From the NCBI GenBank assembly GCA_022794265.1, contig JAAWEK010000024.1, positions 1 to 64,000 of the forward strand: DNA of 64,000 nt, in the 5' to 3' direction. The notes below the pieces were generated by a model that was given only the letters and a program-made list of their open reading frames with translations, searched no databases and was not told the DNA's origin. Shown piece after piece: positions 7,606-26,124 of the stretch. The position numbers and the translations under genes are program-made. This DNA comes from Lachnospiraceae bacterium (GTDB taxonomy: Bacteria; Bacillota; Clostridia; Lachnospirales; Lachnospiraceae). Position 1 is the first letter of the stretch; the number at the start of each line of letters is the position of its first letter.

Positions 7606-8202
7606 ATGGCAGATTACACTATAATATCGGATATCAGTTCTTACATCATAAAGCTGTTAAGAGAGAATATGTGTCCGGAGCCGGTTCCGGCAGAAAATAA
7701 AATCGAAATCTGCTCCCCCGTGGACGAGGAAACGGATTACATATTAGGATTGTATCTCTATGATATCCGGGAAGAAGGACAGGTAACGATTCCGCCTCTT
7801 AATATTCCGGGAAAACCGGGAGTGAAACAGCCGCCGAGACCATATGCACTCTATTATATGGTATTTGTAAACGGTTCTTCAAAAACCGGTATGAAATCTT
7901 CCGATTTACAGAAAATCATAGGCCGGGCGGCACAGATTATCATGGACCATAACAGAATAGTTCCGTCAGAACTGCAAAGCAGACTGGAGATTGATGAACC
8001 GTCTATTGCGGTAGCTCAGGCTAAGATTTCGCTGGAAGAGAAATTCCGGGTGTGGCAGGCGGTAAATAAACCATATCAGGTAAGCCTGTTTTACAGAATG
8101 GCGCCGGTATTTATTTCCAGCGGTATTATGGTTGATATTCCAAAAGTAACGGAAGCTTCCATTGATGTACAGATGACCGGCGGCAGAGGAAACAGAGACT
8201 GA
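7606..8202 (+). CDS. DUF4255 protein, CIS tail terminator/sheath-cap (Pvc16-like)
   Basis: A 198-residue protein with the DUF4255 fold: N-terminal helical segment (ISDISSYIIKLLRENM), a beta-rich core with the family-type phrase YILGLYLYDIREEG, a Pro-rich loop RPPYALYYMVF-like region, and C-terminal YQVSLFYRMAPVFI. Family members (Pvc16/Afp16 N-terminal domain) cap and stabilise the distal end of the tube and sheath in contractile injection systems. The ATG at 7606 is chosen because GGGAGGA at 7594-7600 precedes it; an upstream in-frame TTG at 7555 overlaps the -10 box and is unlikely. First gene of the operon. Confidence 0.85.
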   Translation: MADYTIISDISSYIIKLLRENMCPEPVPAENKIEICSPVDEETDYILGLYLYDIREEGQVTIPPLNIPGKPGVKQPPRPYALYYMVFVNGSSKTGMKSSDLQKIIGRAAQIIMDHNRIVPSELQSRLEIDEPSIAVAQAKISLEEKFRVWQAVNKPYQVSLFYRMAPVFISSGIMVDIPKVTEASIDVQMTGGRGNRD

Positions 8203-8206
8203 ATGA

Positions 8207-9022
8207 ATGCCGGGGGATAAACTTTTAAAAGGGGTGGATACCATTTTCAAATATCAGACAGATTTAGTTATATATCTTATCGATACGGTTTCCGGATCCG
8301 TAATTTCAGAAGAAAATGTTGCGCTGATAAGAAATAAGACATTTCTTAATGCCATAAAAAAGGATATGGGGTTTTATGTTCTTTACAACACCGGAAGAGA
8401 AAATTTTAAATTAACGGTCTGTGCAGACGGCTATGAGCGTAAGGAATTTCCAGTAAACTATGAAAGGCTGGATTCAAAGATTCCTGCCATATATGTTCAG
8501 ATGGTGCCAAAGCGAAGCTTAAAAAATGATACTGCCATATGGGAATTAAAGGGAAATATTTCAGGACTGACTACCATAGATGCGGTAAGTGAGGAAGACA
8601 GTTTTTTATATTTTAAGGAATATAGAAAAGAGGAACAGGTATTATCATTGTTTAATTGCAGGGAAGGCGCCTATGCCGGCCGGCAGTATGCAGTTATAAA
8701 CCCCGGAAAAACAGCATACGCAGTATTTGAGATACAGCAGGAATTATCCGGCAGCCCCTTATCCGGAAAACAGTGGAAAATAGACGGAATTCCGGAAAAA
8801 TTCTGTATTCCAAATGCAGTGATTGCCAGAGTGGTTCACGGAATTGCTGAACAGAACGGAGATTACATCCTGCGGCTGAAAGCCGGGAGTGATTTCCGAA
8901 AGGACGGGAAAAAAAATATATACATCATCCGCTGTATAGTGAATGGAACAGAAAAGTTCTGTTGTCTGGATTGGCAGGATGAAAATCAGAAGTCAGGAGG
9001 GATTCCATGGGAGCGCTGGTAG
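8207..9022 (+). CDS. CIS-associated protein with carboxypeptidase-regulatory-like N-terminal domain
   Basis: A 271-residue soluble protein in the CIS operon, five bases after the DUF4255 gene. Residues 15-90 read like a Greek-key/carboxypeptidase regulatory-like beta domain (LVIYLIDTVSGSVISEENV then KLTVCADGYERKEFPVNY). The rest is beta-rich and unassigned. The following PAAR-like gene starts inside its last codons (ATG 9007), so the two are translationally coupled, which suggests a role near the spike tip or in its assembly. A GTG eight codons downstream could also be the start. Function not known. Confidence 0.6.
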   Translation: MPGDKLLKGVDTIFKYQTDLVIYLIDTVSGSVISEENVALIRNKTFLNAIKKDMGFYVLYNTGRENFKLTVCADGYERKEFPVNYERLDSKIPAIYVQMVPKRSLKNDTAIWELKGNISGLTTIDAVSEEDSFLYFKEYRKEEQVLSLFNCREGAYAGRQYAVINPGKTAYAVFEIQQELSGSPLSGKQWKIDGIPEKFCIPNAVIARVVHGIAEQNGDYILRLKAGSDFRKDGKKNIYIIRCIVNGTEKFCCLDWQDENQKSGGIPWERW

Positions 9023-9396
9023 TAACAGGCGGAACGGCACAATGTACATTTGGGACAGCGCCGGGAACGATAAATGCGACAGCACAAAGTATGTGTTTTG
9101 GCTGCAGTAAGCCTGTGGCAACCATCAAAGATACGGCAGCCAATGTTAACATTACACCCTTTGGAATGTGTACGTCCATGGCAAATCCTCAGGTTGCGGC
9201 GGCAACGGCAGCAGCGCTGGGGGTGCTGACCCCCCAGCCTTGTATGCTGGTGGCAGCAGGATCCTGGATTCCAACAAATCCGGCAGTTCTTGTGGGAGGA
9301 ACCCCCTGTCTGACCAATGATTCCCGGTTATTCTGTGGAAATGGGATGGGAACAATTGCGATAACATTCCCGGGACAGACTACCATAGTTATATAA
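9007..9396 (+). CDS. DUF4280 PAAR-like spike tip protein
   Basis: A 129-residue protein of the DUF4280 family, a PAAR-like cone that sits on the spike of contractile injection systems. Visible family features are GALVVTGGTAQCTFG at the start, the block NITPFGMCTSMANPQVAAAT, then a TPQPC motif and CLTNDSRLFCGNGMG near the end. Cys residues and Asn-Pro turns recur as in the family, where they help shape the tip and may hold a metal. Start ATG 9007 follows GGAGGG and overlaps the previous gene by 16 bases. It lies before the sheath gene rather than next to the spike gene. Confidence 0.85.
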   Translation: MGALVVTGGTAQCTFGTAPGTINATAQSMCFGCSKPVATIKDTAANVNITPFGMCTSMANPQVAAATAAALGVLTPQPCMLVAAGSWIPTNPAVLVGGTPCLTNDSRLFCGNGMGTIAITFPGQTTIVI

Positions 9397-9482: not shown

Positions 9483-11177
9483 ATGGCAGAATATTTATCA
9501 CCAGGAGTATATGTGGAGGAGTATGACAATTCTCCGCGAACGATTGAAGGAGTAGGTACCAGTACCGCAGGATTTGTGGGACTGGCAGTAAAAGGACCGG
9601 TAATGGGAGCGCCGTCCCTTGTTACAAGTTTTGCGGATTTTACCAGACAGTATGGGGGATATTTAAGTGAATTTACCCATGGGGAATACCGGTATCTGGC
9701 CTACAGCGTGGAGCAGTTTTTTGTAAACGGAGGAACCCGCTGTTATGTATCCCGTGTAATTCCATCGGATGCCAAAGCCGCCACGGCGGAAAAAGGAATC
9801 CTTACCATGACGGCGGCCAATGAGGGAAAATGGGGTAACCGCTTAATGGTCACTTTGGGTACCATTGCAAAAAAGAAGATGCATTTGATTGCGAAAGAAG
9901 GAGAAAAAGTTTATACCGCCCGGAATACCGACGGATTTAAAGAAGGTGACATTGTAGTTTTTGGCGAAGAGTATAACCGGATTCAGTCTGTTTTTGACAA
10001 TACTATTACATTTGAGGAGGAATTTACAGAATCTCCGGTGGACAATGAGGTGGTACCGAAAAAATTTCTTCTGCTGGTAGAAATGGATATGCTGATACGT
10101 TATAACGAAGAATCGGAAGTGTATGCCGGACTGAATTTCAATCCGCTGTCACCGGATTATATTGTTACCAGACTTTCTGCCAGTCAGTTAATAAAAGTTA
10201 CAGTATCGGAAACGGGAGAAATCAAAAACCCGGCGGAAGCAATACTGGGACAGGGTATTACCAACGGTACGGTTAGTTTTGAAGGCGGCAGCGACGGAAC
10301 GATGGAAAAAGTAAATGCGGGAACCTTTATCGGAGAGGATAAAGGACCGGGAATGCGGACCGGACTGGCTTCCTTTGTAGAAAACAATGTAGTCAGTATG
10401 ATGGCAGTGCCGGGAATCACCATACCGGAAGTAGTGGTTGCACTTGTTGCCCAGTGTGAAAATCTGGGAAACCGGTTTGCGGTCATTGATATGCCGAAAG
10501 AACTGGTCAGCACAAAAGACTTAATCGAATACAGAGGAATGATTGACAGCACCTATGCGGCAATGTATCATCCTTGGATTCAGGTGTTTGACCGTTCCAC
10601 ACAGAAGCCCGGTTACATACCGCCGTCAGGGGCAATTCTTGGCGTTTATTCCAGAACGGACATTGCAAGAGGAGTTCACAAGGCGCCTGCCAATGAAACA
10701 GTAATGTGTACCGGATTAAGCACCAATTATACAAGAAATGAACAGGATATTTTAAATCCGGAAGGTATCAATTTAATCCGTTTGCTGCCGGGACAGGGTA
10801 TTCGTGTATGGGGAGCCAGAACTGCCAGCAGCAACAGTGCATTTAAATATGTAAACGTCAGACGTTTATTTATTTATGTGGAAGAAAGTATTAAGGCAAA
10901 TACCAGCTGGGTTGTATTTGAACCAAATGATTCTACACTCTGGACAAGAGTACAGATAACTATAGCTTCATTTCTGGATTCCATGTGGAGGTCGGGAATG
11001 CTGGCAGGAGGATCGCCGTCAGAAGCGTTTTTTGTGGAAATCGGCACCCAGACCATGACAAAAGACGATATTATGAGCGGCAGATTAATCTGCAATGTGG
11101 GAATCGCACCATCCAGACCGGCGGAATTTGTTATTTTCCGTGTAACCCAGCATACATCGGAATCGGCAGGCGGCTGA
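9483..11177 (+). CDS. Contractile tail sheath protein
   Basis: A 564-residue sheath subunit. The N-terminus (YLSPGVYVEEYDNSPRTIEG, then GVGTSTAGFVG) is the hallmark of phage/CIS sheath proteins. The C-terminal domain (about 440-560) carries FEPNDSTLWTRVQITIASFL and TQTMTKDDIMSGRLICNVGI, the conserved interlocking region. Subunits polymerise around the tube in an extended state and contract to drive it forward. There is a single sheath gene here; several eCIS clusters have two or three. The ATG at 9483 follows AAAGGAG. Middle residues (about 120-300) form the variable outer domain. Confidence 0.95.
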   Translation: MAEYLSPGVYVEEYDNSPRTIEGVGTSTAGFVGLAVKGPVMGAPSLVTSFADFTRQYGGYLSEFTHGEYRYLAYSVEQFFVNGGTRCYVSRVIPSDAKAATAEKGILTMTAANEGKWGNRLMVTLGTIAKKKMHLIAKEGEKVYTARNTDGFKEGDIVVFGEEYNRIQSVFDNTITFEEEFTESPVDNEVVPKKFLLLVEMDMLIRYNEESEVYAGLNFNPLSPDYIVTRLSASQLIKVTVSETGEIKNPAEAILGQGITNGTVSFEGGSDGTMEKVNAGTFIGEDKGPGMRTGLASFVENNVVSMMAVPGITIPEVVVALVAQCENLGNRFAVIDMPKELVSTKDLIEYRGMIDSTYAAMYHPWIQVFDRSTQKPGYIPPSGAILGVYSRTDIARGVHKAPANETVMCTGLSTNYTRNEQDILNPEGINLIRLLPGQGIRVWGARTASSNSAFKYVNVRRLFIYVEESIKANTSWVVFEPNDSTLWTRVQITIASFLDSMWRSGMLAGGSPSEAFFVEIGTQTMTKDDIMSGRLICNVGIAPSRPAEFVIFRVTQHTSESAGG

Positions 11178-11252: not shown

Positions 11253-11747
11253 ATGGCTACATACGATAATGGAAATGGATTGGCATACCCGTTAACCAAA
11301 ATGAATTTTTTAGTAACTGTGGAAGGCGTTAACGGAACTGCGGCATTTAACGAAGTCAGCGGAGTTGAAGCATCGGTGGATGTAATTGAATTTCGTCAGG
11401 GAAATGCCCACAGCCTGGCTCCGGTTAAAATACCGGGACTGGTGAAACACGGAAATATAACGTTGAAATTGGGATATACACTGGACAGTGCGTTTAAAAC
11501 GTGGATTCAGGAATGTGTATCAGAGGTCAGAAAAGAAATGCCAAGGCATAAGGTATCCATTGAACTGATAGATATTAACGGAGGAGCGCCATCTTCAGCA
11601 GTTACATCTATTTCCGGTACCAGAGTATGGGTACTGACCAATGCGTGGGTAACAAAATACTCTGCCCCCGATTTAAATGCAACTGCTAGTGAAGTGGCAA
11701 TAGAATCGGTTGAGCTGGCATATGAGGAATTGATAATTCCGAATTGA
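11253..11747 (+). CDS. CIS inner tube protein 1 (gp19/Hcp-like)
   Basis: A 164-residue tail-tube protein. It opens with NGLAYPLTKMNFLVTVEG, and continues FNEVSGVEASVDVIEFRQGN and LKLGYTLDSAFKTWI, the typical tube beta-barrel pattern of gp19-family proteins. Hexameric rings stack to make the needle inside the sheath. The ATG at 11253 is chosen for AAAGGAG at 11239-11244; a TTG seven codons upstream overlaps that site. A 14-base tandem repeat spans its stop codon (see repeat at 11730-11785). Confidence 0.9.
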   Translation: MATYDNGNGLAYPLTKMNFLVTVEGVNGTAAFNEVSGVEASVDVIEFRQGNAHSLAPVKIPGLVKHGNITLKLGYTLDSAFKTWIQECVSEVRKEMPRHKVSIELIDINGGAPSSAVTSISGTRVWVLTNAWVTKYSAPDLNATASEVAIESVELAYEELIIPN

Positions 11748-11808: not shown

Positions 11809-12171
11809 ATGGTTACAGTATATGATTTTGAACTGCCAAGAGGATATATGGATAACGCAGGAGAACTTCACCGAAGGGGAAAAATGCGTCTTGCAACGGC
11901 GGCGGATGAAATCGGCGCCACCCGTGATCCCAGAGTATTGTCCAATCCCTCATATCTCACCGTTGTGGTACTGTCAAAAGTGATTATAGAGCTGGAAGGA
12001 CTGGAGACGGTCACCACTACCAACATTGAGCGTCTGTTTACGGCGGATCTGGCATTTCTGCAGGATATGTATCAAAGGATAAATGATATAGAGCCTCCGG
12101 TTATAAAGACAGTATGCCCGGAATGCGGAAAAGTACATGAGGTGCCGCTAAATTTTACCGGGGAGGGATGA
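11809..12171 (+). CDS. Small CIS assembly protein with zinc-ribbon-like CPxC motif
   Basis: A 120-residue protein between the two tube genes. Residues 1-70 are mostly helical (LPRGYMDNAGELHRRGKMRL, ending in VVLSKVIIELEGLETV). The C-terminus has VCPECGKVHEVPL, a CPxC knuckle with a following His that could help bind zinc. The position and length match the small tail-assembly (chaperone-like) proteins found after tube genes in eCIS clusters and phages, but I cannot assign a precise family. Start ATG 11809 follows GCAGGAGG. Its stop overlaps the next start (ATGA). Confidence 0.7.
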   Translation: MVTVYDFELPRGYMDNAGELHRRGKMRLATAADEIGATRDPRVLSNPSYLTVVVLSKVIIELEGLETVTTTNIERLFTADLAFLQDMYQRINDIEPPVIKTVCPECGKVHEVPLNFTGEG

Positions 12172-12362
12172 CGCTTTATCCGGAGGAGGAAGCATACAGG
12201 GAAATGTCCTTTATTTCCTACTATTTTCACTGGCAGGAGAATGCAGTAATGACATTGGAACATAAGGCGAGACGGAAATGGTGTGAAGAAATTTCAAGGA
12301 TAAATGCCGATATCAATCCCTCTAAGAAAGAAAAAGAAAAGAGTATATTTGAGTTAAGGTAA
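12168..12362 (+). CDS. Small CIS protein, DUF6760-like
   Basis: A 64-residue helical protein overlapped with the previous gene by ATGA at 12168-12171. YPEEEAYREMSFISYYFHW at the start and HKARRKWCEEISRIN in the middle resemble the short DUF6760-type proteins encoded between tube genes in eCIS operons. Such phage-like pairs of small genes often work as tail-assembly chaperones. Function inferred from place and size. Confidence 0.65.
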   Translation: MTLYPEEEAYREMSFISYYFHWQENAVMTLEHKARRKWCEEISRINADINPSKKEKEKSIFELR

Positions 12363-12376
12363 AGGAGGAAAGGTCT

Positions 12377-12865
12377 ATGGCGGTTCAGGCATTGTCAGGA
12401 AACAACATTGTAACCAACACTGGAGATTATCCGCTGGTCAATAATCATTTCATGCTTCGGGTTGAAGGAATTTATGACCTGCCCTGCAGACGGATTACCG
12501 GAATTCAAAAGGACAATGAGTATGAATATATACAGGAAGGCGGACTGAACGATTATGTTCATATCCGCCGGAAACCGGTATCCAAGCCGTTTACTTTTCA
12601 GGTGGAACGATATGCAGGTTCCGATTACTTTGACCCGATGCCTAATGGAGCGGAACTGATACTTCCGGTATTGCTGCTGGTCAGCCGTTACGCCAACCGG
12701 TTTGACATGACAAAACGTACCTATGCCTTTACCGGATGTACAGTCATGGGAAAAAGTTACGGGGAATTAAATGCGGAAAGCAGCGGACTACTGGTGGAAA
12801 CCACAACTATTGCATACAGGGAAATGCTTTGTATCGACACGATGTGGGATGACATAAAGGTTTAA
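12377..12865 (+). CDS. CIS inner tube protein 2 (gp19-like, baseplate-proximal tube)
   Basis: A 162-residue second tube-type protein. It shares the tube layout: NHFMLRVEGIYDLPCRRITG at residues 24-43, a loop with NDYVHIRRKPVSKPFTFQVE, and a C-terminal strand region. It equals the place of Afp5/Pvc5-type tube-initiation proteins, which form the layer joining the main tube to the hub. Start ATG 12377 follows AAAGGAGGAAAGG. Distinct from tube protein 1 in sequence. Confidence 0.85.
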   Translation: MAVQALSGNNIVTNTGDYPLVNNHFMLRVEGIYDLPCRRITGIQKDNEYEYIQEGGLNDYVHIRRKPVSKPFTFQVERYAGSDYFDPMPNGAELILPVLLLVSRYANRFDMTKRTYAFTGCTVMGKSYGELNAESSGLLVETTTIAYREMLCIDTMWDDIKV

Positions 12866-12876: not shown

Positions 12877-15708
12877 ATGAAATGCGGTATGCTGAAAATA
12901 AAGGGACAGATAAAACTGAAAAGTTTAAGAGGTATATCACTGACACCGAATATTCTGTATGACAGGATTGGTGTTTATTACCGCATCATGAATCTTCAGA
13001 TATCAGCGGAAGATTTTTTTCATCTGCTGAACCGTCCGCCGGAACTATATCTGGCGGAAGGAGAGGTATTTCATCTGACCGTAAATAATGATACAGGTAA
13101 TCAGTATCTAAAACTGGAATTTATTAATCAGATGTTAAACCGGCTTCTGTTGCTGGAAAATCAGAGCCTGTCTTATCAGGACAGCGTATTTGTCACGGCA
13201 ATGCTGAAAAAAACAGGAATAATACAGATAGGGGAACTACTGAAAGATATTCGTCAGTCGCTGAAAGAAAATCAGACCATAAATAAACTGACGGATTTGT
13301 ACCAGTATAACGGTACGGTAATCAGAAAGCTGGTAAGGGCCGGAGAAAAAGAATCCGTATCCATCGTTCAAAAGAATTATGAACAGCAGTATGGCAGACA
13401 TAGTGGTACTGCAGGATACCATTACCAACAGGAAGCGTGTTATGCGTTTTCTTCGGCAGTGTATCAGAGACTGCAGACAGAGGAAATCTATAATCAGGTA
13501 TATGAGAGAAACAGGCAATACGGTTTTGCCATGCAGACTGTAAATCATCAGGAACTGAATATGGCGGAGCAGGTACGGGCATCCGGTAATCTGTTATTGT
13601 CCCGGCTGCGGAAGGCATATACCTTCCGGGAAACCGGAGGAACTGAAATATATATCAATCCCTACGAGGCGGGAGCCGGTAATGAGACAAGGGTTACCAG
13701 AGAAACGGTATTGTCGGAAATCCTGTCGGCGGTGGTTCTGAGTCTTGTAAATAATATCAGCCGGATACGCAGGGAGCAGATGGAGCAACAGGTTTATCCC
13801 CAGTATCGGATTGTACAGTCCCTTTACCACAGTATGGAAAATGTTTTAAACAGATATGAGCTTTTTCATACACAGGAAACATGGAAGACAGCGGAGATTT
13901 ATCCTTTTATGGAGGATAACAGGACTCTGTGGGACTCTGAAATCAATTTACTGGAGGAGATGGTCAGAAAAGAAGCAGTGCTGCAGTTCAGTAATGAAAC
14001 CATACATTCGGCCCGCTGGCAGCAGGCGCTTATACATGGTCTCAGCCGGTCTGAGGAATATAATCTGTCAGAAACTGTGTGGAATACATTTATGGAGTAC
14101 AGTCAGACGGAAAATCAATTCTCTGAGACAAATGTAAAAGTAATACAGAATCCGGTTTTTTTTGACAAAGAATCCGACTATCAGAATATTATTGATGCGC
14201 TACAACATAAGACAGATGAATATTTTTCTGAAGAAAAACAGGAAATCATAACCGAAATTGTTTGTGAACTTGTAAACAGTACAATAAAGACTCTATCGGC
14301 ACAAACATCAGAGCAGCAAAGCACATTGGTAAAAGAATTGTCGGAAGTACGGGAAATTTCAAAAGTAATTAAAGAAATAGGAAGTACAGGCTATACTTAT
14401 GGATATCCACAGCTGGCGGATGAGAAAAGCAGCATGGCATTCAGAGAATTTGGAAATATTGTCAATTTAAATCATAACAATGCAGATAAATATGAAAAGA
14501 ATGTTGTTTCTGAATCTCACAGGCTCCGGCAGAAATTAAATCTGACGTATTCTGTTGTACATCAATGGTTTAATGATGAGAAGGCAGAGATAATGATTTC
14601 AGGATTAAAAGCCGGGGATTCAGAATCAGATAAGCAAATTGTTTTCAGGCGCGATAGTGATATCCATGTAAAAGAAAAAACGGTTCGGGAATTGCGGCAG
14701 ATTATACAGAAGGAAAAATCAATACGGAATATATTCCGGCAGGATAATGAATATCACCAGGAGTATCACGAAAATAAAACAGAAATATCCAGACAATTAT
14801 CGGAAAACGAAGAAATCCAAAATCAATGGCAGAACCAGGAGATGCTCCGCCAGCTTCAGGAAATTAATCAGAAAAACATTGAGATAAATCAGAAATACAG
14901 ACAGGAACTGCAGCAGCGGAATACCTCAGTTTCCCACTTGCAGGCGGACGGAAGAAAGACCATAAAGGAAACATTAAAAGTCATACAGAATCCTCAGAAT
15001 GAGTCCGTTGAAAGTATAGAACTAATACAAAAAAATCCGAAACCGCCTGCCATTGATGAGGCAGTCCGAAAACTGGCTTCCAGAGAAACCATTGAAATCC
15101 TGGAAAGTATATTAGGAAGAAAATCCGAAAATCCTGAAAAAGCGCCAGACGGAGTATTACAAAAGTCATTGGATGATAGCGGAAATGAAGGAAAACAATC
15201 CATAAAAATACACAGGAAACCGGAAGCGGAGCTGCAGTGGGAAATACGGGAAATTGAACGGCAAATGAAAGGACAGATGGAACGGCAGACAAAACAGCAG
15301 TATTCGGTTATGGAGACATGGAAATCATTTATGCCTCCGGCTGGAATGCGGGAAGAAATTCAGGCAGCAGGCGAAAGTCCCGGATTGCCTCAGAACCCGT
15401 TGCAGGCGGTGACCTTGATTCATAAAGAACAAAACACTCTGACAGAGGAGGCGCTTCTTCCATATTTGCGGCAATACAGACAGCCGAAGGGCAAAGAAAA
15501 AAATGATTTTAACGGGATGGTGGTGAATCGCAGGACAGAGACAAAAGAAATCAGCCGGAAGATAAACCAGACACAATCCCAATCAAAAGAGGAAGTAGAG
15601 GAACTGGTCAGGAGAAATCTGCAGCGGCAGATGGAAACCATAACAGACCGGGTCTTTAACCGGATAGAAAAAAAACTGCAGATGGAGCGGAGACGAAGAG
15701 GATATTAA
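12877..15708 (+). CDS. 943-residue Q/E-rich protein, candidate tape measure or lumen cargo
   Basis: The longest unassigned protein of the CIS operon. Residues 1-150 look globular (LKSLRGISLTPNILYDRIGV, then NRPPELYLAEGEVFHLTV). From about 150 to the end it is dominated by Gln, Glu, Arg and Asn, with long helical and coiled-coil stretches (for example QEINQKNIEINQKYRQELQQ near 660) and no membrane helix or catalytic motif. It lies between tube protein 2 and the tube-adaptor genes. No other candidate for a tape-measure protein exists in the operon, so this could set tail length; a cargo packed in the lumen is the alternative. ATG 12877 sits too close to AAGGA; ATG 12889 in the same frame may be the true start. 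Confidence 0.65.
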   Translation: MKCGMLKIKGQIKLKSLRGISLTPNILYDRIGVYYRIMNLQISAEDFFHLLNRPPELYLAEGEVFHLTVNNDTGNQYLKLEFINQMLNRLLLLENQSLSYQDSVFVTAMLKKTGIIQIGELLKDIRQSLKENQTINKLTDLYQYNGTVIRKLVRAGEKESVSIVQKNYEQQYGRHSGTAGYHYQQEACYAFSSAVYQRLQTEEIYNQVYERNRQYGFAMQTVNHQELNMAEQVRASGNLLLSRLRKAYTFRETGGTEIYINPYEAGAGNETRVTRETVLSEILSAVVLSLVNNISRIRREQMEQQVYPQYRIVQSLYHSMENVLNRYELFHTQETWKTAEIYPFMEDNRTLWDSEINLLEEMVRKEAVLQFSNETIHSARWQQALIHGLSRSEEYNLSETVWNTFMEYSQTENQFSETNVKVIQNPVFFDKESDYQNIIDALQHKTDEYFSEEKQEIITEIVCELVNSTIKTLSAQTSEQQSTLVKELSEVREISKVIKEIGSTGYTYGYPQLADEKSSMAFREFGNIVNLNHNNADKYEKNVVSESHRLRQKLNLTYSVVHQWFNDEKAEIMISGLKAGDSESDKQIVFRRDSDIHVKEKTVRELRQIIQKEKSIRNIFRQDNEYHQEYHENKTEISRQLSENEEIQNQWQNQEMLRQLQEINQKNIEINQKYRQELQQRNTSVSHLQADGRKTIKETLKVIQNPQNESVESIELIQKNPKPPAIDEAVRKLASRETIEILESILGRKSENPEKAPDGVLQKSLDDSGNEGKQSIKIHRKPEAELQWEIREIERQMKGQMERQTKQQYSVMETWKSFMPPAGMREEIQAAGESPGLPQNPLQAVTLIHKEQNTLTEEALLPYLRQYRQPKGKEKNDFNGMVVNRRTETKEISRKINQTQSQSKEEVEELVRRNLQRQMETITDRVFNRIEKKLQMERRRRGY

Positions 15709-18296: not shown

Positions 18297-19108
18297 GTGA
18301 ATTCTTTAATATATTCGACGATATTTCCAAAAAGCAGATATTAAAAACGGAAACCGGAGATTCCCGGATTTTCGGCGTTATGACGGGAATCGTTGCAAAA
18401 AATTATGACGGCGATATGCCGGGGCGGGTCTGTGTAACCCTTCCGGTCAGGGATACGGATGCCAATGAATTAAAGTGGGCCAGAACCGCCATGCCGTCCT
18501 CAGGCCCCAAATACGGTCATTATTTTCTGCCGGAAATCGGAGACCAGGTACTGGTGGCATTTGAACAGGGAAATATTGAAAAACCCTTTATCATAGGCTG
18601 TATTCCCAAAGACAACGATTCTTTTCTTCAGAAATCTGTGGATGAAAACAATCAAATCAAACGGATTATGACCAAAAACGGAAATACCATTCTTTTTGAA
18701 GATAATAATGAGGGAGACGGGGAGAAAGACAAGATAAAGATTGAAACGCCGAAACAGGCTCATACCGTTGTTCTGGACAATGAAAATAAGAAAATCGTAA
18801 TACAGGATAAAGAAAAAAAATGTCAGATTGAAATGAAGAGCGAAAATGGTGAAATTAATATAAAAGCCGGCAGCAAACTGACAATTGAAGTAGGAAATAA
18901 TATTAAAATAAAGATGAACGGTGAAAGCGGAGAAATAAAGATTGAGGCGGTAAAGCTGTCAGCAACGGCTTCTTCCAAGGTAAACATTGCTTCTGACGGA
19001 AGCGCAAAATTCAGCGGCAGTCAGACGATTATAGAGGCCTCTTCCGTACTGAAGGAAAACAGTAGCGGAATGGTGCAGATACAGGGAAGTCCCATCAAAA
19101 TAGGTTAG
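18293..19108 (+). CDS. CIS spike protein (gp5/baseplate V-like OB fold plus beta-helix)
   Basis: A 271-residue protein. Residues 25-110 form the OB-fold of gpV/gp5 proteins (IFGVMTGIVAKNYDGDMPG, then GHYFLPEIGDQVLVAFEQG). The remainder is a repetitive, charged beta-helix with alternating short strands (KDKIKIETPKQAHTVVLDNE, then GEINIKAGSKLTIEVGNNI) expected of a trimeric spike shaft. The DUF4280 protein encoded at 9007 would cap it. Start ATG 18293 overlaps the hub gene stop by four bases. Confidence 0.88.
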   Translation: MSEFFNIFDDISKKQILKTETGDSRIFGVMTGIVAKNYDGDMPGRVCVTLPVRDTDANELKWARTAMPSSGPKYGHYFLPEIGDQVLVAFEQGNIEKPFIIGCIPKDNDSFLQKSVDENNQIKRIMTKNGNTILFEDNNEGDGEKDKIKIETPKQAHTVVLDNENKKIVIQDKEKKCQIEMKSENGEINIKAGSKLTIEVGNNIKIKMNGESGEIKIEAVKLSATASSKVNIASDGSAKFSGSQTIIEASSVLKENSSGMVQIQGSPIKIG

Positions 19109-19174: not shown

Positions 19175-19600
19175 GTGAGTATGGAGGAAAATCGCTTTTT
19201 GGGGCTGGGAATGAAGTTTCCGCCGCAGGTGAACAGGACAACGGGACGGTTTGCCGTTGCAGAGGGACTGGAAAGCGTAAAGGAGTCGGTATATATCATC
19301 CTGATGACACAGAAGACAGAGCGGATGTTTGCACCGGATTTTGGCAGCAGACTGCTGTCCTATACATTTATGGATACCAATAGAACGGAATTGAACATAA
19401 TGGCACGGGATTTGAAGGAAACCATATTGAAACAGGAACCCAGAATCTCAGGAGTGGATATTAATATCACACCGGATAATGCCAATGGACGGCTGATGGT
19501 ATATATTGATTATCTGGTTGCGGAAAGCCACACAAGGGATAATCTGGTGTTTCCGTTTTATTTGGATACGGTGGAGGAGCAGAGGGAAAATGGTAAATAA
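19175..19600 (+). CDS. gp25-like baseplate wedge protein
   Basis: A 141-residue protein of the gp25/lysozyme-like baseplate family (named for the fold relation, not for lysozyme activity). The key region is SVYIILMTQKTERMFAPDFG followed by SRLLSYTFMD. It carries the conserved pattern that nucleates sheath assembly at the baseplate. Start is GTG at 19175 with AAAGGAAGAAGG upstream; ATG 19181 is a second option. The next gene begins 11 bases before its end. Confidence 0.9.
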   Translation: MSMEENRFLGLGMKFPPQVNRTTGRFAVAEGLESVKESVYIILMTQKTERMFAPDFGSRLLSYTFMDTNRTELNIMARDLKETILKQEPRISGVDINITPDNANGRLMVYIDYLVAESHTRDNLVFPFYLDTVEEQRENGK

Positions 19601-22511
19601 CAGCTATGGAAATACAGAGGATATCCGGAAACGAATCCGGCATCTGGCCGAATCTTATACGCCGGAGTGGAAATTTGATGAGAAGAATCCAGATATGGGT
19701 TCGGTAATTGCCATGATTTATACGGACCAGACAGAAGACAATATGAAGCGGTTTCGTCAGGTTATGGATAAATACCGGACGGAATTGATTAATATGCTGG
19801 GAATTTCCCTGATGGCGGCCCGCCCCGCAAAATCGGCGGTGGTTATGAATCTGTTAGGGGATACCGTGGAAGGACGGGTGGTTCCAAAGGGCACCCGTCT
19901 GCTGGAAGAGGAAAACTCTGTTGTTTTTGAAACTCTTCATGATATTTGTGTGACAGGAGCAAAACTTACCCATATATTCCAGATATCCCAGCACCAGGGG
20001 AAAGTCATATCCTGCAGTCCCGGCGGGCCTGTTTCGGTTTTCAGTTTTTCCGGCAGCGAACCGGTCAGAAACCGGTTGATAATTTATCACAAAACCCTCT
20101 TTGCTGTGGATAACGATGAAATATTGCTACGGTTTTCATCGCTGCATGAACAGGAGAAGATGAATATCCGTTTTGACGATGAAAAAAAATATCGTTTTTA
20201 CTGTTATACACAGCATGGATTGGAGGCATTTGACGAAACCCTATGGGATGAGGGGATTATCCGGTTAAGAACCAAAGAAAAATGCGTGCCGGTGAAGATG
20301 GACGGCCGGCAGTATACGGCAATTGTTTTGGAGGCATTGCAACCGGTATTATCTCCTGTTGAATTAAAAAATATAGAAATATCCCTTTCCGGCAGCCGGG
20401 AAATCCCGGAATTTGTCTGTAATTCCTTTATGGATATGAGTTGTGACAAATTTACACCCTTTGGGGAAGAACTGGCATTGTATGCAGAATGTTATATCGG
20501 AAATGATAGAATATTTTCCAAAGCAGAGGCGTTGATTACGCTTACATTCCGGTTTGAAATGGAGGAAAATCGGGTAGGGTTTATACCTGTCCGGAGGGAG
20601 GAATCTCTTAAAATCATAAAACGAAAGCCTGAAAAAATATCGTATGACCGGGAGGCAGAGGCTTTTATTCAGGAAATTTCCCTGGAGTATTATAATGGAA
20701 AGGGATTTAAAAAATTAAACTGTATTTCCGGAGTGGAAACTATATTTTATCAGGAGGGCGGAGGAAGCGGCCGGATTCAGTTTATCTGTCCGGAAGATTT
20801 TTCTCCGTTCAGTGTTTTGGGAAATGAAGGTCTGTGTATCCGCATGCAGATTTTAAGAGCTGACAATTGCTATCTTCATCCATCCATTCATCACTATCCG
20901 GTAATAAAAGATTTAGAGATGTCATATTCCTATGAGGAACGGTATTTTGAACCTGATGGGATTATGAGATGCGCCGGCAGCCGGCAGAAAAACGGTATGG
21001 AACCCTGGGCGAGATGGAAGGGCAGAGGTTATATTCCGGCATTTCTTCCACTGCCCTATGACGGAACCGGCCTGTATCTGGGGTTTGACAAAAAACCAGA
21101 AGGGGGACCTGTAAGTCTGTTTTTTATGATAGATGAAAGCCGCAGCGTAATACCTCTCTCTCTTCGGTTTGAATATTCTTCTTTCCATGGATTTAAGCCG
21201 CTGAAGGTTTTGGACAATACAAATGGTTTTATTGATTCGGGAACATTAATATTTATGCCGCCGGAGGATTTTGCACGCTGTAACATAGAAGGAAGGGAAA
21301 ATTATTATATACGGATTCTGGATATGGGAAATACTGGTTTTAAAGAAGAAAGCTATTATCCGGTTATCAATCATATCTATTTAAATGCGGTTATGGTGGA
21401 AAACATTGAAACCATGGAAGAAGAGGAGTTCTACATCGACCGGGTTTCGGCTGGAATGAAGTTTCCGCTGAATGCCGGCAATATTCTGAATTGTCAGGTG
21501 TATGTCAATGAAATCAATAAATATACGCCGGCCCAGATGAAGGAAATGATAGCGGACCCAATGCGGAAGGTTAAGGCAGAGTATAACTATCTGGGAGAAA
21601 TCACGGAATTTTATGTTCTTTGGGAAGAAGTGGAGAATTTTTCCCGCTCGAAGGCCGGGGACAGGCATTATGTGATTGACCGTATGAACAATACCATTGA
21701 ATTTGGAGACGGAGTTCATGTAAAGATTCCCGAATATACGGCCGGAGCCGCATTCAGGGTGGTCGCCGGCTGCTGCAGAGGGGCGGAGGGCAATGTTAAC
21801 CCGGGAAGTATCACCCGGTCAGCTTCCAATCTGTTGTTTATCGGAGATATATTTAACCCGGTCCGGGGATATGGAGGCAGTGATATTGAAACGCCGGACA
21901 TGGCCCTGAACCGGGGCGCCGCTCTGCTGTCAGGCCGGCACAGACTGATTTCGGACCGGGACTATATCCGGGAGGTAAAATCTTTTTCCGGCAGCATTGA
22001 CCAGGTAAAGTGTGTTTGCGGCGAAAACGGTAGTATAAGTCTGGTGATTTTAATGAAGGATTTTGAAGAGGGTTCCTATTCTTTCCGCAATATCAGCCGG
22101 GAGCTAAAGAGGCATTTGCTGGAGCAGTGTGAACTGACGGTGAAACCGGAAGATTTAAATATCAGGGAGCCGGTATTTTTAAAAATATCCGTGGAGGTCT
22201 GGGCCGTGGCGGAACATATGAATGAAGCATTTGATATCCGGAATTTGTTGTCAGAGCGAATCCGCAGTTTTTTTCATCCGGTTTCCACGGGTCCTGGAAC
22301 AGGTCATGAAATCGGAGTGCTGCCGGGAGAACAGCAAATCATTACAATGCTTCATTCCGTTCCGTTTAACGGAAGGATTTCCCGTTTTACGGTAACTGCC
22401 TGTTATATGGATTCAGATGGTGAACATGAAACGGATATCAGCCGTATGCGGCAGAATCCTTTTATCGTGTGCATGAACGGAAACCATACCATTCATTTGT
22501 CGGAGGCATAG
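19590..22511 (+). CDS. Large baseplate J-like wedge protein 1 (Afp11-like)
   Basis: A 973-residue baseplate protein. Residues 5-90 are helical (NTEDIRKRIRHLAESYTPEW), followed by a beta domain with AVVMNLLGDTVEGRVVPKGT. The C-terminal third carries the J-like core: DGVHVKIPEYTAGAAFRVVA, GAEGNVNPGSITRS and LLSGRHRLISDRDYIREVKS, where turns after GA.GN and the DRDY motif are typical of gpJ/gp6. ATG 19590 overlaps gp25 by 11 bases. With the second J-like protein it should form the wedge dimers around the hub. Confidence 0.88.
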   Translation: MVNNSYGNTEDIRKRIRHLAESYTPEWKFDEKNPDMGSVIAMIYTDQTEDNMKRFRQVMDKYRTELINMLGISLMAARPAKSAVVMNLLGDTVEGRVVPKGTRLLEEENSVVFETLHDICVTGAKLTHIFQISQHQGKVISCSPGGPVSVFSFSGSEPVRNRLIIYHKTLFAVDNDEILLRFSSLHEQEKMNIRFDDEKKYRFYCYTQHGLEAFDETLWDEGIIRLRTKEKCVPVKMDGRQYTAIVLEALQPVLSPVELKNIEISLSGSREIPEFVCNSFMDMSCDKFTPFGEELALYAECYIGNDRIFSKAEALITLTFRFEMEENRVGFIPVRREESLKIIKRKPEKISYDREAEAFIQEISLEYYNGKGFKKLNCISGVETIFYQEGGGSGRIQFICPEDFSPFSVLGNEGLCIRMQILRADNCYLHPSIHHYPVIKDLEMSYSYEERYFEPDGIMRCAGSRQKNGMEPWARWKGRGYIPAFLPLPYDGTGLYLGFDKKPEGGPVSLFFMIDESRSVIPLSLRFEYSSFHGFKPLKVLDNTNGFIDSGTLIFMPPEDFARCNIEGRENYYIRILDMGNTGFKEESYYPVINHIYLNAVMVENIETMEEEEFYIDRVSAGMKFPLNAGNILNCQVYVNEINKYTPAQMKEMIADPMRKVKAEYNYLGEITEFYVLWEEVENFSRSKAGDRHYVIDRMNNTIEFGDGVHVKIPEYTAGAAFRVVAGCCRGAEGNVNPGSITRSASNLLFIGDIFNPVRGYGGSDIETPDMALNRGAALLSGRHRLISDRDYIREVKSFSGSIDQVKCVCGENGSISLVILMKDFEEGSYSFRNISRELKRHLLEQCELTVKPEDLNIREPVFLKISVEVWAVAEHMNEAFDIRNLLSERIRSFFHPVSTGPGTGHEIGVLPGEQQIITMLHSVPFNGRISRFTVTACYMDSDGEHETDISRMRQNPFIVCMNGNHTIHLSEA

Positions 22512-22525: not shown

Positions 22526-24691
22526 ATGTTAAATAGCGTAAATCTTGATGACAAAACTTATGAGGAACTGCGGCAGGAGGCGGTCGGCAGAATTCCCCTT
22601 TATTCACCGGAATGGACCAATTTTAATCAATCGGATCCGGGTATTACTATTCTGGAGGCATTAACTTCCTTTCAGCTGATGCAACAGAAGGCAATTAATA
22701 CCGTAACTCCGGCGGTGCAGATGAAGCTGCTGAAAATGGCGGGTTATGTACCGGAACCGGCGGGTTGCGCCAGGGTTCTGCTTGGAGTATCCAATCCGGA
22801 GCAAAAATTTAATCTCCCAATGAATCAGAAAATTTATGCAGGTGAAACCTGTTTTGAGACGGCAGAGGAAATTATTTATGATGGAGAGAAAATTCTGGGG
22901 GTATACATAGGAGACAGGGATTCCGGACAGATATCAGCCGGAAGGGATATTACAGAATTGGTCAGAACGGAATTACCCATAGGCTGTGAGATTTTTACGG
23001 ACCGGCCCGAAAGCGGCAGATATATGGATATTCTTTTAAGCGGGATTGGTCAAAAAGAGGAGTTAATCTTCTATATCTCGGCAGAGGAGCGGGTAAAGCG
23101 GAATCCGTTTTCGGATTATAATCGAAATCCTTTTGCCAGAGTGGTCTGGCAGGTGTGGACAACCGATGGATTTCGGCATGTTCCTGTGGAAAAAGTCTGT
23201 GACGAAACCTGCGGTTTTCTGGTCAGCGGAGAAATCAGAATTCAGATTTCCATGGAGGCGGCTGTATCCCGGCACTATGGAAAGGAAGGACATCTTTTAC
23301 GGGCATTTCTGGCAGAAGCGGATTATGATATTCCGCCGAAAATCCGCGCTATAAAAGGTTTTTTATTTGAAGCGTTTCAAAAGGACTCCCAGGGGATTAC
23401 TTATACGATTGATGGAAACAACTGGAAACCATTGAAAGTTTCGGCCTTTGGAGAAGACTATATGATATTTGAAGTTTATGGGGAATTACAGGACAGTGGT
23501 TATCAGAGCGTATACTGTATGGAGCAGGAGGACGGAGCCGGAAAGTATTATAAATATATTGAGATAGATTCCGAAACCGGGGATGAGATTATGGAACAGG
23601 GAAGGTTTTACAGAAAAATTCCGGCCGGAAACAACCGTTATCATTACTGTTTTAATAAAAATGGCAGTTATCATCCGGCAGAATGTCATAAATCCCTTCG
23701 AATCGTATGTTATGGGGAACAGGCTTTTTCCCGGAGATTTGTAGGAGATATCTGCGGATATGATAATCAGGTTTTTGAACTTTCCATTAAAAATATATTT
23801 GACAAAGATTTGTTAATGCTGGCAGAGTATGAAAACCGAAGGGGGGACATTGTTTACGATTTTATTCCGCCGGGGTTGACCGGTGATGAAGAATTAAATT
23901 TTATCCTGGTGGGGGATAGCGGTAAGGTTCTGGTTACAAATCCGGGAATATATGCCGGAGGCAGGCTTTATTTTGCCAATTTATCTGTGTATGCCGGTGC
24001 GGAGGGAAATGTGCGGGAGGAAAATGAATTTTTTATCCCGGACCATCCGAAGGCTGTATTTTTCAATCCCGCCAGGGGAAGGGGGGGAAGAAAAAAGGAA
24101 ACCGTCGAAGAATTAAAGAAGCGGTTTTCTGCGGATATGTTGTCTCCCGGTTGTGCCGTAAACCAGGAGGATTACCGCAGAATCGTTATGGAAACGCCGG
24201 GACTGGCGATTCATAAGGTTCGGGCGGCTATGGATAAAGAGGGCAGTAGCGTTTCCATTGCAGTAAAACCTTATGGTCTTTCGCTTATGCCGAAGTTATC
24301 TCAGGTCTATAGAGAAGAAATTATGAAATATATTGATGATAAAAGGCTGCTTACCACCAGAGTAAAACTTTGTTCGCCTGTGTATGTGCCGGTTAATGTC
24401 CACTGCGTTCTTTATGTTAAGAAATATGCAGAAACCTGTCAGAAAATGGCGGAGACGCTAATCAGAAAACAACTGGATCATACCGCAGACGGTCACGATT
24501 TTGGAGAAAAAATCATCTATGGAAATCTGTTCAGGGCCATAGAATCCTTGGAAGGTGTGGAGTATGTTTACAGTCTTTCCATAAAAACAGGAAAGAGCCA
24601 GCATGTGACCATGGCAGGCTATGACATTATCCCGGATGAGGATAGTCTTTGTTATCCGGGAGATATCGTTGTGGATACGAAATCAATTTAG
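22526..24691 (+). CDS. Baseplate J-like wedge protein 2 (Afp12-like)
   Basis: A 721-residue protein with the same architecture as the previous one: N-terminal LVDD-like start (NSVNLDDKTYEELRQEAVGR), YSPEWTNFNQSDPGITILEA near 30-50, and a C-terminal J-like core with VYAGAEGNVREENEFFI, RGGRKKETVEELKKRF and VNQEDYRRIVMETPGLAI. ATG 22526 is chosen for the GAAGAAGGTG site; it starts 14 bases after the previous stop. The two J-like proteins are distant paralogues, as in Afp/PVC systems. Confidence 0.88.
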   Translation: MLNSVNLDDKTYEELRQEAVGRIPLYSPEWTNFNQSDPGITILEALTSFQLMQQKAINTVTPAVQMKLLKMAGYVPEPAGCARVLLGVSNPEQKFNLPMNQKIYAGETCFETAEEIIYDGEKILGVYIGDRDSGQISAGRDITELVRTELPIGCEIFTDRPESGRYMDILLSGIGQKEELIFYISAEERVKRNPFSDYNRNPFARVVWQVWTTDGFRHVPVEKVCDETCGFLVSGEIRIQISMEAAVSRHYGKEGHLLRAFLAEADYDIPPKIRAIKGFLFEAFQKDSQGITYTIDGNNWKPLKVSAFGEDYMIFEVYGELQDSGYQSVYCMEQEDGAGKYYKYIEIDSETGDEIMEQGRFYRKIPAGNNRYHYCFNKNGSYHPAECHKSLRIVCYGEQAFSRRFVGDICGYDNQVFELSIKNIFDKDLLMLAEYENRRGDIVYDFIPPGLTGDEELNFILVGDSGKVLVTNPGIYAGGRLYFANLSVYAGAEGNVREENEFFIPDHPKAVFFNPARGRGGRKKETVEELKKRFSADMLSPGCAVNQEDYRRIVMETPGLAIHKVRAAMDKEGSSVSIAVKPYGLSLMPKLSQVYREEIMKYIDDKRLLTTRVKLCSPVYVPVNVHCVLYVKKYAETCQKMAETLIRKQLDHTADGHDFGEKIIYGNLFRAIESLEGVEYVYSLSIKTGKSQHVTMAGYDIIPDEDSLCYPGDIVVDTKSI

Positions 24692-24710
24692 GAGGAAAGG
24701 CAGGTTTGGG

Positions 24711-25835
24711 ATGGCTTATACGTTTAAAAATTATACGGTTCGGAAAAGTAAGATAGAAAACAGTGATTACCGGGGATTTGTTCTGAAGGAAAACGGAAGG
24801 CTTGTGACAACCCGGGACGGACAAAGGCATATATTGTTTTTACAATATATTGACAGCGGGGAAACGGATTTGGAGTGGGGCAGATTAAAAGTTGATGCGT
24901 CCATGGAGGGGGAAATGGTTCTTTCCATTCAGGCATTTGCAGTCAACCGGTTGGATTACCGGAAGGAAAATTGTATTGTCAACCTGGAAGAGTTAATATT
25001 GTCCCGGGAAAGAAGTACGGAAGAAAAGGAAATTTATTTTTCCGGGACAGATTTTTGGGGTTCAAAAAAATTTTTTGGCTGCGAAGATGTATTATTATAT
25101 GGAATAAAGGGACGGTATTTGTGGCTGTGTATCGAGCTGATTGGGACAGGAACGGCCTCTCTCAATAGTATCAACGTGGATTCGCCGGGAGATATTATGC
25201 TGGATGTTTTTCCGGAAATATATCGGGAAAAAGATTCGTTTTTACACAGGTATCTGTCGGTTTTTTCTTCTGTTTTTATGGATTTGGAATATAAAATAGA
25301 AGGAATACATAATGAGATGGATTTAGAAACAGCCAGCGCTGATATGCTGAAGATGTTCGGCGAATGGATGGGGTTGAATCTGTCTGGCAGTTTCCTCAGT
25401 GAAGAGAAATTAAGGTCACTGTTAATCCGGCTGCATTCTTTTAACCGGATGAAGGGAACGAAACAGACGGTACTGGGTCTGACAGAAATTCTGCTGGGGG
25501 AGCCTGCTCTGCTGGTAGAGCGGAATCTGCTGGAACATGGGGACAGGAGGATGTATGATGACTTATACGGGAGCAGTCCCTATGATATAACATTATTGAT
25601 AAACGGCAGGGCCGACGAACAGAAACAATCCTGTTTATTATTTTATCTGAAGCAGTTTATTCCGGTCAGAAGCCGGGTAAAAATAGTATTTTTAAATCAT
25701 TGCTGTAATCTGGATTCCTATTGTTATCTGGACATGAATGCGGCGGTTTATTCCGGGGTTCCCGGGGCGGCGGACGAGGGACAGGGGTTAGATGAAAATT
25801 TTATTGTATATAAAGGAGGATTATATGAATCTTAA
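24711..25835 (+). CDS. gpI-like baseplate/tail protein
   Basis: A 374-residue protein. Residues 1-165 form a beta-rich N-terminal domain (YTFKNYTVRKSKIENSDYRG) not recognised elsewhere. Residues 170-340 match phage tail protein I: LDVFPEIYREKDSFLHRYLS, FGEWMGLNLSGSFLSEE, and FNRMKGTKQTVLGLTEILLG. gpI-type proteins bind the J-like wedge and anchor fibres. No fibre gene follows; the beta-rich N-terminal domain could serve as receptor-facing part, which is inference. Start ATG 24711 follows AGGAGGAAAGG. The STAS gene begins 11 bases before its stop. Confidence 0.85.
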   Translation: MAYTFKNYTVRKSKIENSDYRGFVLKENGRLVTTRDGQRHILFLQYIDSGETDLEWGRLKVDASMEGEMVLSIQAFAVNRLDYRKENCIVNLEELILSRERSTEEKEIYFSGTDFWGSKKFFGCEDVLLYGIKGRYLWLCIELIGTGTASLNSINVDSPGDIMLDVFPEIYREKDSFLHRYLSVFSSVFMDLEYKIEGIHNEMDLETASADMLKMFGEWMGLNLSGSFLSEEKLRSLLIRLHSFNRMKGTKQTVLGLTEILLGEPALLVERNLLEHGDRRMYDDLYGSSPYDITLLINGRADEQKQSCLLFYLKQFIPVRSRVKIVFLNHCCNLDSYCYLDMNAAVYSGVPGAADEGQGLDENFIVYKGGLYES

Positions 25836-26124
25836 TACCACCAGAACAGAGGATACTATTACAATTGAAATTGAAGGGAGAGTTGATACGAATACCAGTC
25901 CGGTACTTCAGAATGAAATCCTACTGAGTTTTCAAAAATTGCCAAAGGTAGTGCTGGATTTTGAGAAAACGGTTTATATATCCAGTGCCGGATTGAGAGC
26001 GTTGCTAATCGGGGAGAAGACGGCACAGTCCAAACAGGGGAGCATGGTATTGAAACATGTGCCAGAGGTGGTGATGAATGTGCTGGAGATGTCGGGGTTT
26101 GCGAAGATACTGAAAATAGAATAG
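25825..26124 (+). CDS. STAS-domain anti-sigma factor antagonist at the end of the CIS operon
   Basis: A 99-residue single STAS domain of the SpoIIAA/RsbV/BtrV type. Beta-strand start TITIEIEGRVDTNTS, then VVLDFEKTVYISSAGLRALL. The serine aligned with the phosphorylated Ser58 of SpoIIAA is Ser54 in YISSAG. The usual partners are an anti-sigma factor kinase (RsbW type) and a PP2C phosphatase; neither is in the window. The start ATG 25825 follows AAAGGAGG and lies inside the end of the gpI gene, so it is translated with the CIS. It may report or control CIS production or firing by partner switching; that link is inference. Confidence 0.88.
   Translation: MNLNTTRTEDTITIEIEGRVDTNTSPVLQNEILLSFQKLPKVVLDFEKTVYISSAGLRALLIGEKTAQSKQGSMVLKHVPEVVMNVLEMSGFAKILKIE

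What the first reader, a model, noticed from the sequence alone, without database searches (positions are those of the whole stretch)
7606..26124. Complete-looking contractile injection system without a remodelling ATPase or fibre gene
Seen: DUF4255 cap, PAAR-like tip, single sheath, two tubes, tube adaptors, split hub and spike, gp25, two J-like proteins and gpI in one operon with tight spacing and a single promoter. Known: eCIS such as Afp and PVC usually carry an AAA+ ATPase (Afp15-like) and fibre genes, and phages carry capsid genes. Here unrelated genes bound both ends (sensor pair on the left, a convergent gene on the right), so the ATPase, the fibre and any capsid are missing locally. 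This suggests a divergent lineage that assembles without the ATPase, borrows one encoded elsewhere, or acts in the cytoplasm or on the membrane.
Basis: partly seen in the sequence, partly recalled or inferred. Interest (0 to 1): 0.75.

Follow-up and report, generated by a model that had tools for sequence, protein, structure and literature searches.

The report
Scattered membrane-docked bacterial injection machine
This stretch encodes the body of a phage-tail-like injection machine, while its motor-like loading protein and its probable membrane-docking parts lie elsewhere in the same genome, which suggests a machine that may fire from the surface of the living cell.

Summary
The operon is real: family models confirm a contractile injection system (CIS) at 7606-26124 with no ATPase, fibre or capsid gene. 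But the lineage does have the ATPase. The window's genome (Lachnospiraceae by its relatives) encodes a Pvc15-like AAA+ protein on contig C9, at least 34 kb from the sheath, beside a 450-aa unknown and two LHH-nuclease genes. Of 44 sheath-bearing genomes among 397 of the family, 39 carry this ATPase; the other five are two cut contigs and three lone or near-lone sheaths. Relatives also carry an envelope module: a crown-like protein, single-TM proteins, a MORN protein, a TolC-like protein. Its F5 genes lie upstream of the sheath in 69 of 69 close-relative loci with enough sequence. The window lacks the module, but its genome has it on contig C29. The crown-like protein weakly matches the crown (Cis19) of the thylakoid-anchored CIS (E 0.0044); the sheath's best solved match is a membrane-bound haloarchaeal CIS. 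Best reading: the structural core of a membrane-docked CIS whose ATPase, cargo and docking parts are encoded elsewhere. Docking is inferred; two structure predictions never finished.

The parts
7534..7563 (+). promoter-like site before the operon
   Evidence: 11 of 12 consensus matches; not more frequent than in shuffles
7606..8202 (+). cap / tail terminator (Pvc16_N, DUF4255)
   Evidence: Pfam 3.9e-24; only copy in the genome
8207..9022 (+). unnamed conserved protein, 271 aa (family F10)
   Evidence: no Pfam, NCBIfam or PHROGs match; found in 17 of the 21 clusters compared, window included
9007..9396 (+). PAAR-like tip (DUF4280)
   Evidence: Pfam 2.3e-28
9483..11177 (+). sheath
   Evidence: Pfam; best solved match 9EZM, 368 bits; only copy
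11253..11747 (+). tube 1 (gp19); start chosen by eye
   Evidence: Pfam 8.3e-32
11809..12171 (+). tail-assembly-chaperone homologue
   Evidence: phrog_508 1.5e-6
12168..12362 (+). DUF6760 small protein, overlaps the gene before it
   Evidence: Pfam 9.6e-15
12377..12865 (+). tube 2 (gp19-like)
   Evidence: Pfam 2e-5, below cut-off
12877..15708 (+). 943-aa protein, tape-measure candidate by position
   Evidence: no library match; inference
15723..16430 (+). CIS_tube adaptor 1
   Evidence: Pfam 2.3e-19
16454..17107 (+). CIS_tube adaptor 2
   Evidence: Pfam 1.2e-14
17133..18296 (+). hub
   Evidence: YQBQ 2.1e-6; phrog_52 1.2e-18
18293..19108 (+). spike (OB fold); start chosen by eye
   Evidence: Phage_base_V 1.1e-20
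19181..19600 (+). gp25; start chosen by eye
   Evidence: Pfam 2e-17
19590..22511 (+). J-like protein 1; start chosen by eye
   Evidence: TIGR02243 8.4e-19, below cut-off; 9GTP chain 6e-9
22526..24691 (+). J-like protein 2; start chosen by eye
   Evidence: Baseplate_J 3.9e-10; 9GTP chain 2e-16
24711..25835 (+). gpI / Cis12-like protein; start chosen by eye
   Evidence: TIGR02242 5.7e-14, CIS12_fam 6e-24 below cut-off
25825..26124 (+). STAS protein (anti-sigma antagonist type), overlaps gpI; start chosen by eye
   Evidence: Pfam 1.1e-12; TIGR00377 over cut-off; in 9 of 9 close relatives with sequence past gpI

Best explanation
The operon encodes cap, sheath, tube and baseplate of a Lachnospiraceae CIS. 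Other conserved parts are encoded outside the window in the same genome (shown by sequence): a Pvc15-like AAA+ ATPase on contig C9 beside putative cargo genes, and on contig C29 a crown-like protein with single-TM, MORN, TolC-like and sensor proteins plus a SpoIIE-type phosphatase and an anti-sigma-like kinase. Inferred working: the particle assembles in the cytoplasm; the ATPase loads cargo into the tube in trans; the baseplate docks on the inside of the membrane through the crown-like protein and the envelope proteins, which make a path through the Gram-positive wall; SpoIIE, kinase and STAS switch expression or firing; the sheath then drives tube and cargo out of the living cell, T6SS-like, so that no fibre is needed. 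Scattered parts: about 0.85. Membrane docking: about 0.6. Firing from the living cell: about 0.4.
For: ATPase in the own genome; sheath and ATPase together in 39 genomes of 397 (44 and 44 alone; Fisher 7e-43, kinship not corrected); F16 in 41, 39 of them with the sheath (5e-46); 18 of 18 fetched relatives with a whole baseplate have ATPase and F16 somewhere in the genome. F5 genes upstream of the sheath in 69 of 80 close-relative loci, the other 11 showing under 3 kb. Own copies of F5a, F16, MORN, F5b, F48 and the sensor, all on C29 in the relatives' order. F16 N-terminus against Cis19 crown (E 0.006 and 0.0044). TM or signal-like helices in the module, none in the operon's proteins except one hydrophobic stretch in the sheath. 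Sheath nearest to the membrane-bound haloarchaeal CIS (paper passages). STAS in the operon, SpoIIE and HATPase on C29.
Against: No experiment; docking rests on association, one weak profile match and simple hydropathy. The sheath also scores well to the cytoplasmic Streptomyces CIS (326 bits). The TolC-like gene is missing from 8 of 9 more distant relatives with a full cluster, so it is not essential to all. The own ATPase shows no winged-helix match at 0.001, though two relatives do. Five genomes have a strong ATPase match without a detected sheath. C29 and C10 may be one interrupted locus rather than scattered loci.
Confidence: 0.6

Rival explanations
1. A cytoplasmic or lysis-released CIS, as in Streptomyces or classic eCIS: particles float free and act after cell death or release. 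The C29 proteins would be sensors and wall proteins that only steer expression.
For: Streptomyces sheath is the second best solved match (326 bits) and J2's only one is chain 1K of 9GTP, an entry whose sheath chain is the one of 8BKY. Particles without fibres are known there (PMC12237407, passages).
Against: A crown-like protein and single-TM envelope proteins travel with the operon; the best solved match is a membrane-bound system. But Streptomyces too needs a membrane protein, CisA, for firing, so the two readings are not far apart.
Confidence: 0.25
2. The window's CIS works without any ATPase: the C9 protein does another job and the ancestral, type I ATPase was lost.
For: The own ATPase groups with the second ATPase of the same-genus genome, not with its upstream one; no type I copy was found in the own genome (one search lists one match).
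Against: Same family and co-occurrence; it sits between an unknown and two LHH nuclease genes; in G249 a member of the same tree group is the only ATPase matched in the genome and lies 2.1 kb from the sheath.
Confidence: 0.08
3. A locus in decay: an RHS-toxin island has split it and the type I ATPase is gone, so the machine no longer works.
For: C29 ends in an RHS/PT-HINT gene right after F5b and the window starts with toxin and immunity remnants.
Against: All 18 genes of the operon and the module genes read open.
Confidence: 0.05
4. A tailocin or prophage remnant.
For: Tail-like gene set; tail-assembly-chaperone homologue.
Against: DUF4255 cap, DUF4280 tip, CIS_tube adaptors; sheath 368 bits to a CIS against 46 to the R-pyocin sheath; no capsid or fibre match among the scanned proteins. 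Lysis genes were not searched for.
Confidence: 0.02

Closest known systems
Haloarchaeal CIS / archaeal T6SS of Halogeometricum borinquense (clade IIa; PMC11566945)
   Same: Nearest solved sheath (9EZM, 368 bits); two Cis11-type genes in that cluster, two J-like genes here; cluster in two parts with toxin-immunity genes between them; its nearest Cis11 relatives are Bacillota
   Different: It has no crown gene and a six-helix anchor candidate; here a crown-like protein and several one-helix envelope proteins; different envelope; no DUF4157/eCIS_core match here (no ringing control)
Streptomyces coelicolor CIS (PMC12237407)
   Same: Single sheath, no fibre, J protein match; Gram-positive host
   Different: Membrane protein there is CisA; here a crown and envelope module. 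No tape-measure gene there, a candidate here
Thylakoid-anchored CIS of Anabaena (PMC8894136)
   Same: Crown protein Cis19 resembles the F16 N-terminus; membrane-anchored
   Different: Match covers about 60 residues only; sheath 172 bits; anchoring there is through Cis12 and Cis13 extensions
PVC and Afp (classic eCIS)
   Same: Cap, adaptors, spike, gp25, J proteins; ATPase with N domain, inactive-looking D1 and active-looking D2 as in Pvc15
   Different: One sheath gene; no fibre recognised; ATPase outside the operon; sheath only 157-162 bits

Membership tests
Contractile injection system (not phage, not T6SS i-iii) | Sheath, tube, spike, gp25 and J-type baseplate genes in one cluster with a DUF4255 cap | tested here: met
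Contractile injection system (not phage, not T6SS i-iii) | No capsid genes in the cluster | tested here: met
   No capsid match among the 20 proteins; 20 further window or flank proteins were not all scanned
Contractile injection system (not phage, not T6SS i-iii) | Cis15-type AAA+ ATPase encoded by the genome | tested here: met
   C9:24587-26749
Classic eCIS (PVC/Afp type) | Fibre gene and ATPase in the operon | tested here: not met
   Neither recognised at 7606-26124
Classic eCIS (PVC/Afp type) | Released by lysis and acting outside the cell | not testable with these tools
   Needs microscopy
Membrane-anchored (T6SS-mode) CIS | Anchor or crown proteins linked to the CIS | tested here: inconclusive
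   Envelope module co-occurs; crown match weak; docking not shown
Membrane-anchored (T6SS-mode) CIS | Extended particles standing on the cytoplasmic membrane | not testable with these tools
   Needs cryo-tomography
Pvc15/Cis15 ATPase | N domain, D1, and D2 with Walker A, Walker B, sensor and two arginine fingers | tested here: met
   Invariant G510-K513 region, D565/E566, N608, R619/R620 in alignment A1, compared with the published motifs
Pvc15/Cis15 ATPase | Winged-helix N domain (PF22977) | tested here: inconclusive
   Matched in two relatives, one below cut-off; not in the own protein at 0.001
Pvc15/Cis15 ATPase | Loads cargo | not testable with these tools
   Bench test
R-type tailocin | Pyocin-like sheath | tested here: not met
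   46 bits against 368 to a CIS
R-type tailocin | Fibre and lysis genes | tested here: inconclusive
   No fibre match; lysis genes not searched for

The most novel reading that the evidence does not exclude
Lachnospiraceae, Gram-positive bacteria common in animal guts, carry a true cell-attached, T6SS-like injection machine: a CIS with a crown and wall-crossing module suited to a thick single-membrane envelope, served by ATPase-cargo cassettes that can sit far from the structural operon and still work for it in trans.
Probability: 0.4. Interest if true: 0.85.

Novelty: new variant of a known kind. Interest (0 to 1): 0.6.

Why it matters
A 2024 paper says that T6SSs had been described only in Gram-negative bacteria, and then reports an archaeal one whose nearest Cis11 relatives are Bacillota (PMC11566945, passages). 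The module described here gives concrete genes with which to test whether Gram-positive gut bacteria fire from the cell surface. It also warns that looking only at an operon's neighbourhood can declare an ATPase or anchor missing when the genome holds it elsewhere. On print: a search for 'contractile injection system' with 'Lachnospiraceae' returned one paper (cockroach hindgut genomes, listing only, not opened); with 'MORN' none. The other searches listed no paper whose title or abstract start describes a Lachnospiraceae CIS. The library lacks most subscription journals and all bioRxiv preprints.

Tried and rejected
ATPase-less lineage: not supported. Prophage or tailocin: disfavoured by the sheath scores and the lack of capsid or fibre matches. 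Fibre hidden among unnamed genes: no library match for 8207-9022 or 12877-15708, not excluded by structure. Overlap of the ends of C29 and C10: compared, longest common run 9 nt within 400 nt of each end, so neighbourhood is only suggested by gene order and orientation. Rfam: no family over its threshold in the window. tRNA: none. eCIS_core in the own genome: no match, and no control rang. Small 170-205 aa proteins beside ATPases: near 9 of 36 ATPase rows (one gene counted twice), but the model was built from those very neighbours, so the pattern is circular and only noted. The automatic family F3 mixes sensors, ATP-binding and ABC-type proteins, and the SpoIIE column also picks up other sensors; SpoIIE and HATPase claims therefore rest on Pfam alone. 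My note calls one solved sheath (7adz) by a wrong system name; from recall it is AlgoCIS. AlphaFold jobs for F16 and the 271-aa protein had not finished, so no fold search was run.
Full report
WHAT IS THERE. The window holds 18 same-strand genes from 7606 to 26124, all open. Pfam, NCBIfam and PHROGs name the cap, PAAR-like tip, sheath, two tubes, two tube adaptors, hub, spike, gp25, two J-like proteins and a gpI/Cis12-like protein. Added here: a tail-assembly-chaperone homologue (11809-12171), a small DUF6760 gene (12168-12362), an unnamed recurrent protein (8207-9022), a tape-measure-sized gene (12877-15708; role inferred) and a STAS protein as last gene. The genome has one match each for cap and sheath. 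It is 2.88 Mb in 34 contigs, 91% complete. Of the 80 related loci kept (of 228 found), 59 have 'Lachnospiraceae' in their title, and two family handles, G157 and G364, agree in contig length and position with Hungatella hathewayi WAL-18680 and Lachnospiraceae bacterium XBB2008.

RELATIVES. The sheath occurs in 2 of 9 genomes of the genus and 44 of 397 drawn from the family, in two groups: 64-73% and, for full-length matches, 51-56% identity. I fetched up to 40 kb around 20 of them and compared genes. G368 has a lone sheath and G182 is cut; in the other 18 J1, J2 and gpI were found. Nine of nine closer relatives with sequence past gpI have the STAS gene there; none of nine more distant ones does.

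THE ATPASE IS NOT MISSING. A 538-815 aa AAA+ family (F8) recurs near the operon; the two members scanned match PF00004, and one matches the winged-helix family PF22977 over its cut-off, the other below it. A profile of 15 relatives' proteins, built without the own one, gave one strong match among the 12 best AAA loci of the own genome and the window: C9:24587-26749, 720 aa, 515.6 bits; the next, FtsH-like by its sequence, had 75.4. A whole-genome search lists one match (there the own protein was in the profile). Among 397 genomes: sheath 44, strong ATPase 44 (four further AAA-only matches of 207-251 bits set aside), both 39, Fisher 7e-43, kinship not corrected. The five sheath genomes without it are G240 and G351 (cut contigs) and G054, G260 and G368 (lone sheath; G260 with a tube). 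Five genomes have a strong ATPase without a detected sheath. In 29 of the 39 both lie on one contig within 30 kb; in 10 they do not. Contig lengths make three remote for certain: the window's genome (at least 34 kb), G062 (at least 76 kb) and G157 (at least 885 kb). A distant ATPase is thus a recurrent minority arrangement.

WHICH ATPASE. In two maximum-likelihood trees (18 and 33 rows) the own ATPase groups with the second, downstream ATPase of the same-genus genome G001 and those of G249, G062 and others (100/99 and 100/100), not with the upstream ATPase of G001. Long branches leave details unsure. On C9 it lies between a family-28 glycosyltransferase (MurG by recall) and a phosphoglucose isomerase gene; next to it are a 450-aa protein without Pfam match and two LHH-nuclease proteins of 166 and 164 aa. 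In relatives, an eCIS_core protein lies beside the ATPase of G340 and a calpain-like protein follows STAS in G001. Not all fit: the remote ATPase of G157 has ordinary-looking neighbours. Pvc15 is reported to load signal-peptide-bearing cargo (PMC11495950: abstract, one section and passages read). I infer that the C9 block is an ATPase-cargo cassette.

THE ENVELOPE MODULE. In the closer relatives the genes upstream of cap or tip are F16, F48, a sensor, MORN, F5a and F5b. F5 genes lie upstream of the sheath in 69 of the 80 loci; the other 11 show under 3 kb there; no exception (some loci are the same genomes as G handles). In the nine more distant relatives with full clusters, F16 and MORN are in nine, F48 in eight, F5a in one, F5b in none, often after gpI. 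The window has none of the module. Its genome has F5a, F16, MORN and F5b once each, on C29, minus strand, with F48 and the sensor between them in the relatives' order. F16 is in 41 of 397 genomes, 39 with the sheath, p 5e-46; in 28 of those 39 it shares the sheath's contig, within 22.1 kb; here it is at least 29 kb away. By simple hydropathy F5a and F5b begin with a signal-like helix, MORN and F48 have one helix, the sensor four, F16 none; the operon's proteins have none save one stretch in the sheath. F5a matches OEP (TolC-type) just over its cut-off.

F16 MAY BE A CROWN. With F16 profiles the only PDB match up to E 0.1 was All3314, the Cis19 crown of the Anabaena thylakoid CIS, starting at residue 19 in both (E 0.006; E 0.0044 with more rows). 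It is weak and about 60 residues long, but it picked a CIS baseplate protein out of 177,635 sequences. Cis19 forms trimers around the baseplate cage (PMC8894136, passages).

ONE LOCUS OR THREE. C29 ends inside an RHS-repeat/PT-HINT gene that starts about 146 nt after F5b. The window starts with pieces that I read as orphan HINT tails (motif recalled; no Pfam match at 309-698) and an Imm42 gene. This fits the relatives' order if a toxin island of at least 17.5 kb has split F5b from the cap. The ends share no sequence, so it is not shown. The haloarchaeal cluster is likewise in two parts with toxin-immunity genes between them (PMC11566945, sections 6 and 10 read). The ATPase on C9 is separate in either case.

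MECHANISM. Shown: gene content, co-occurrence, order, domain matches. Inferred: assembly in the cytoplasm; cargo loading in trans; docking through crown and envelope proteins; firing from the living cell; control by SpoIIE phosphatase, HATPase kinase and STAS, whose Pfam domains are on C29 and in the operon. The sheath's best solved matches are the membrane-bound haloarchaeal CIS (9EZM, 368 bits), two Streptomyces-type chains (8BKY 326, 8BL4 317), an unnamed one (9QGL 175), thylakoid CIS (172), PVC (162), 7ADZ (160; AlgoCIS by recall) and Afp (157).

VERDICT. Observation confirmed with additions. Interpretation partly supported: 'borrowed from elsewhere' is right for this genome, 'without an ATPase' is not supported, and 'on the membrane' is the likeliest mode. 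A new variant of a known kind; the module and the scattering are the interesting part. My confidence in the whole statement is 0.6 because docking and firing are inferred.

Noticed in passing
window 309-2509: Remnants of polymorphic-toxin ends (HINT-like motif read by eye, no Pfam match) with an Imm42 immunity gene at 1361-1915.
   Followed up: partly
L089 10729-19779 (contig C10 74729-83779) and L176 1-9828: Two RHS-repeat genes of about 3000 codons, 52% identical, each running off a contig end.
   Followed up: partly
[not shown]
   Followed up: no
L187, L189, L190, L195, L196, L197, L072, L074: Small 170-205 aa proteins next to CIS ATPases in 8 relatives, possibly cargo chaperones; the pattern is circular as tested.
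   Followed up: partly
L047 7207-9468; L188 10264-12324: Calpain-like protein (PF00648 1.1e-19) after STAS in a same-genus genome, and a weak PI3/PI4-kinase match beside an ATPase: candidate cargo.
   Followed up: no
G054, G260, G368 (L178-L181, L081, L082): Lone or near-lone sheath genes without baseplate genes in 36-40 kb; G054's still scores 936 bits to the sheath profile.
   Followed up: no
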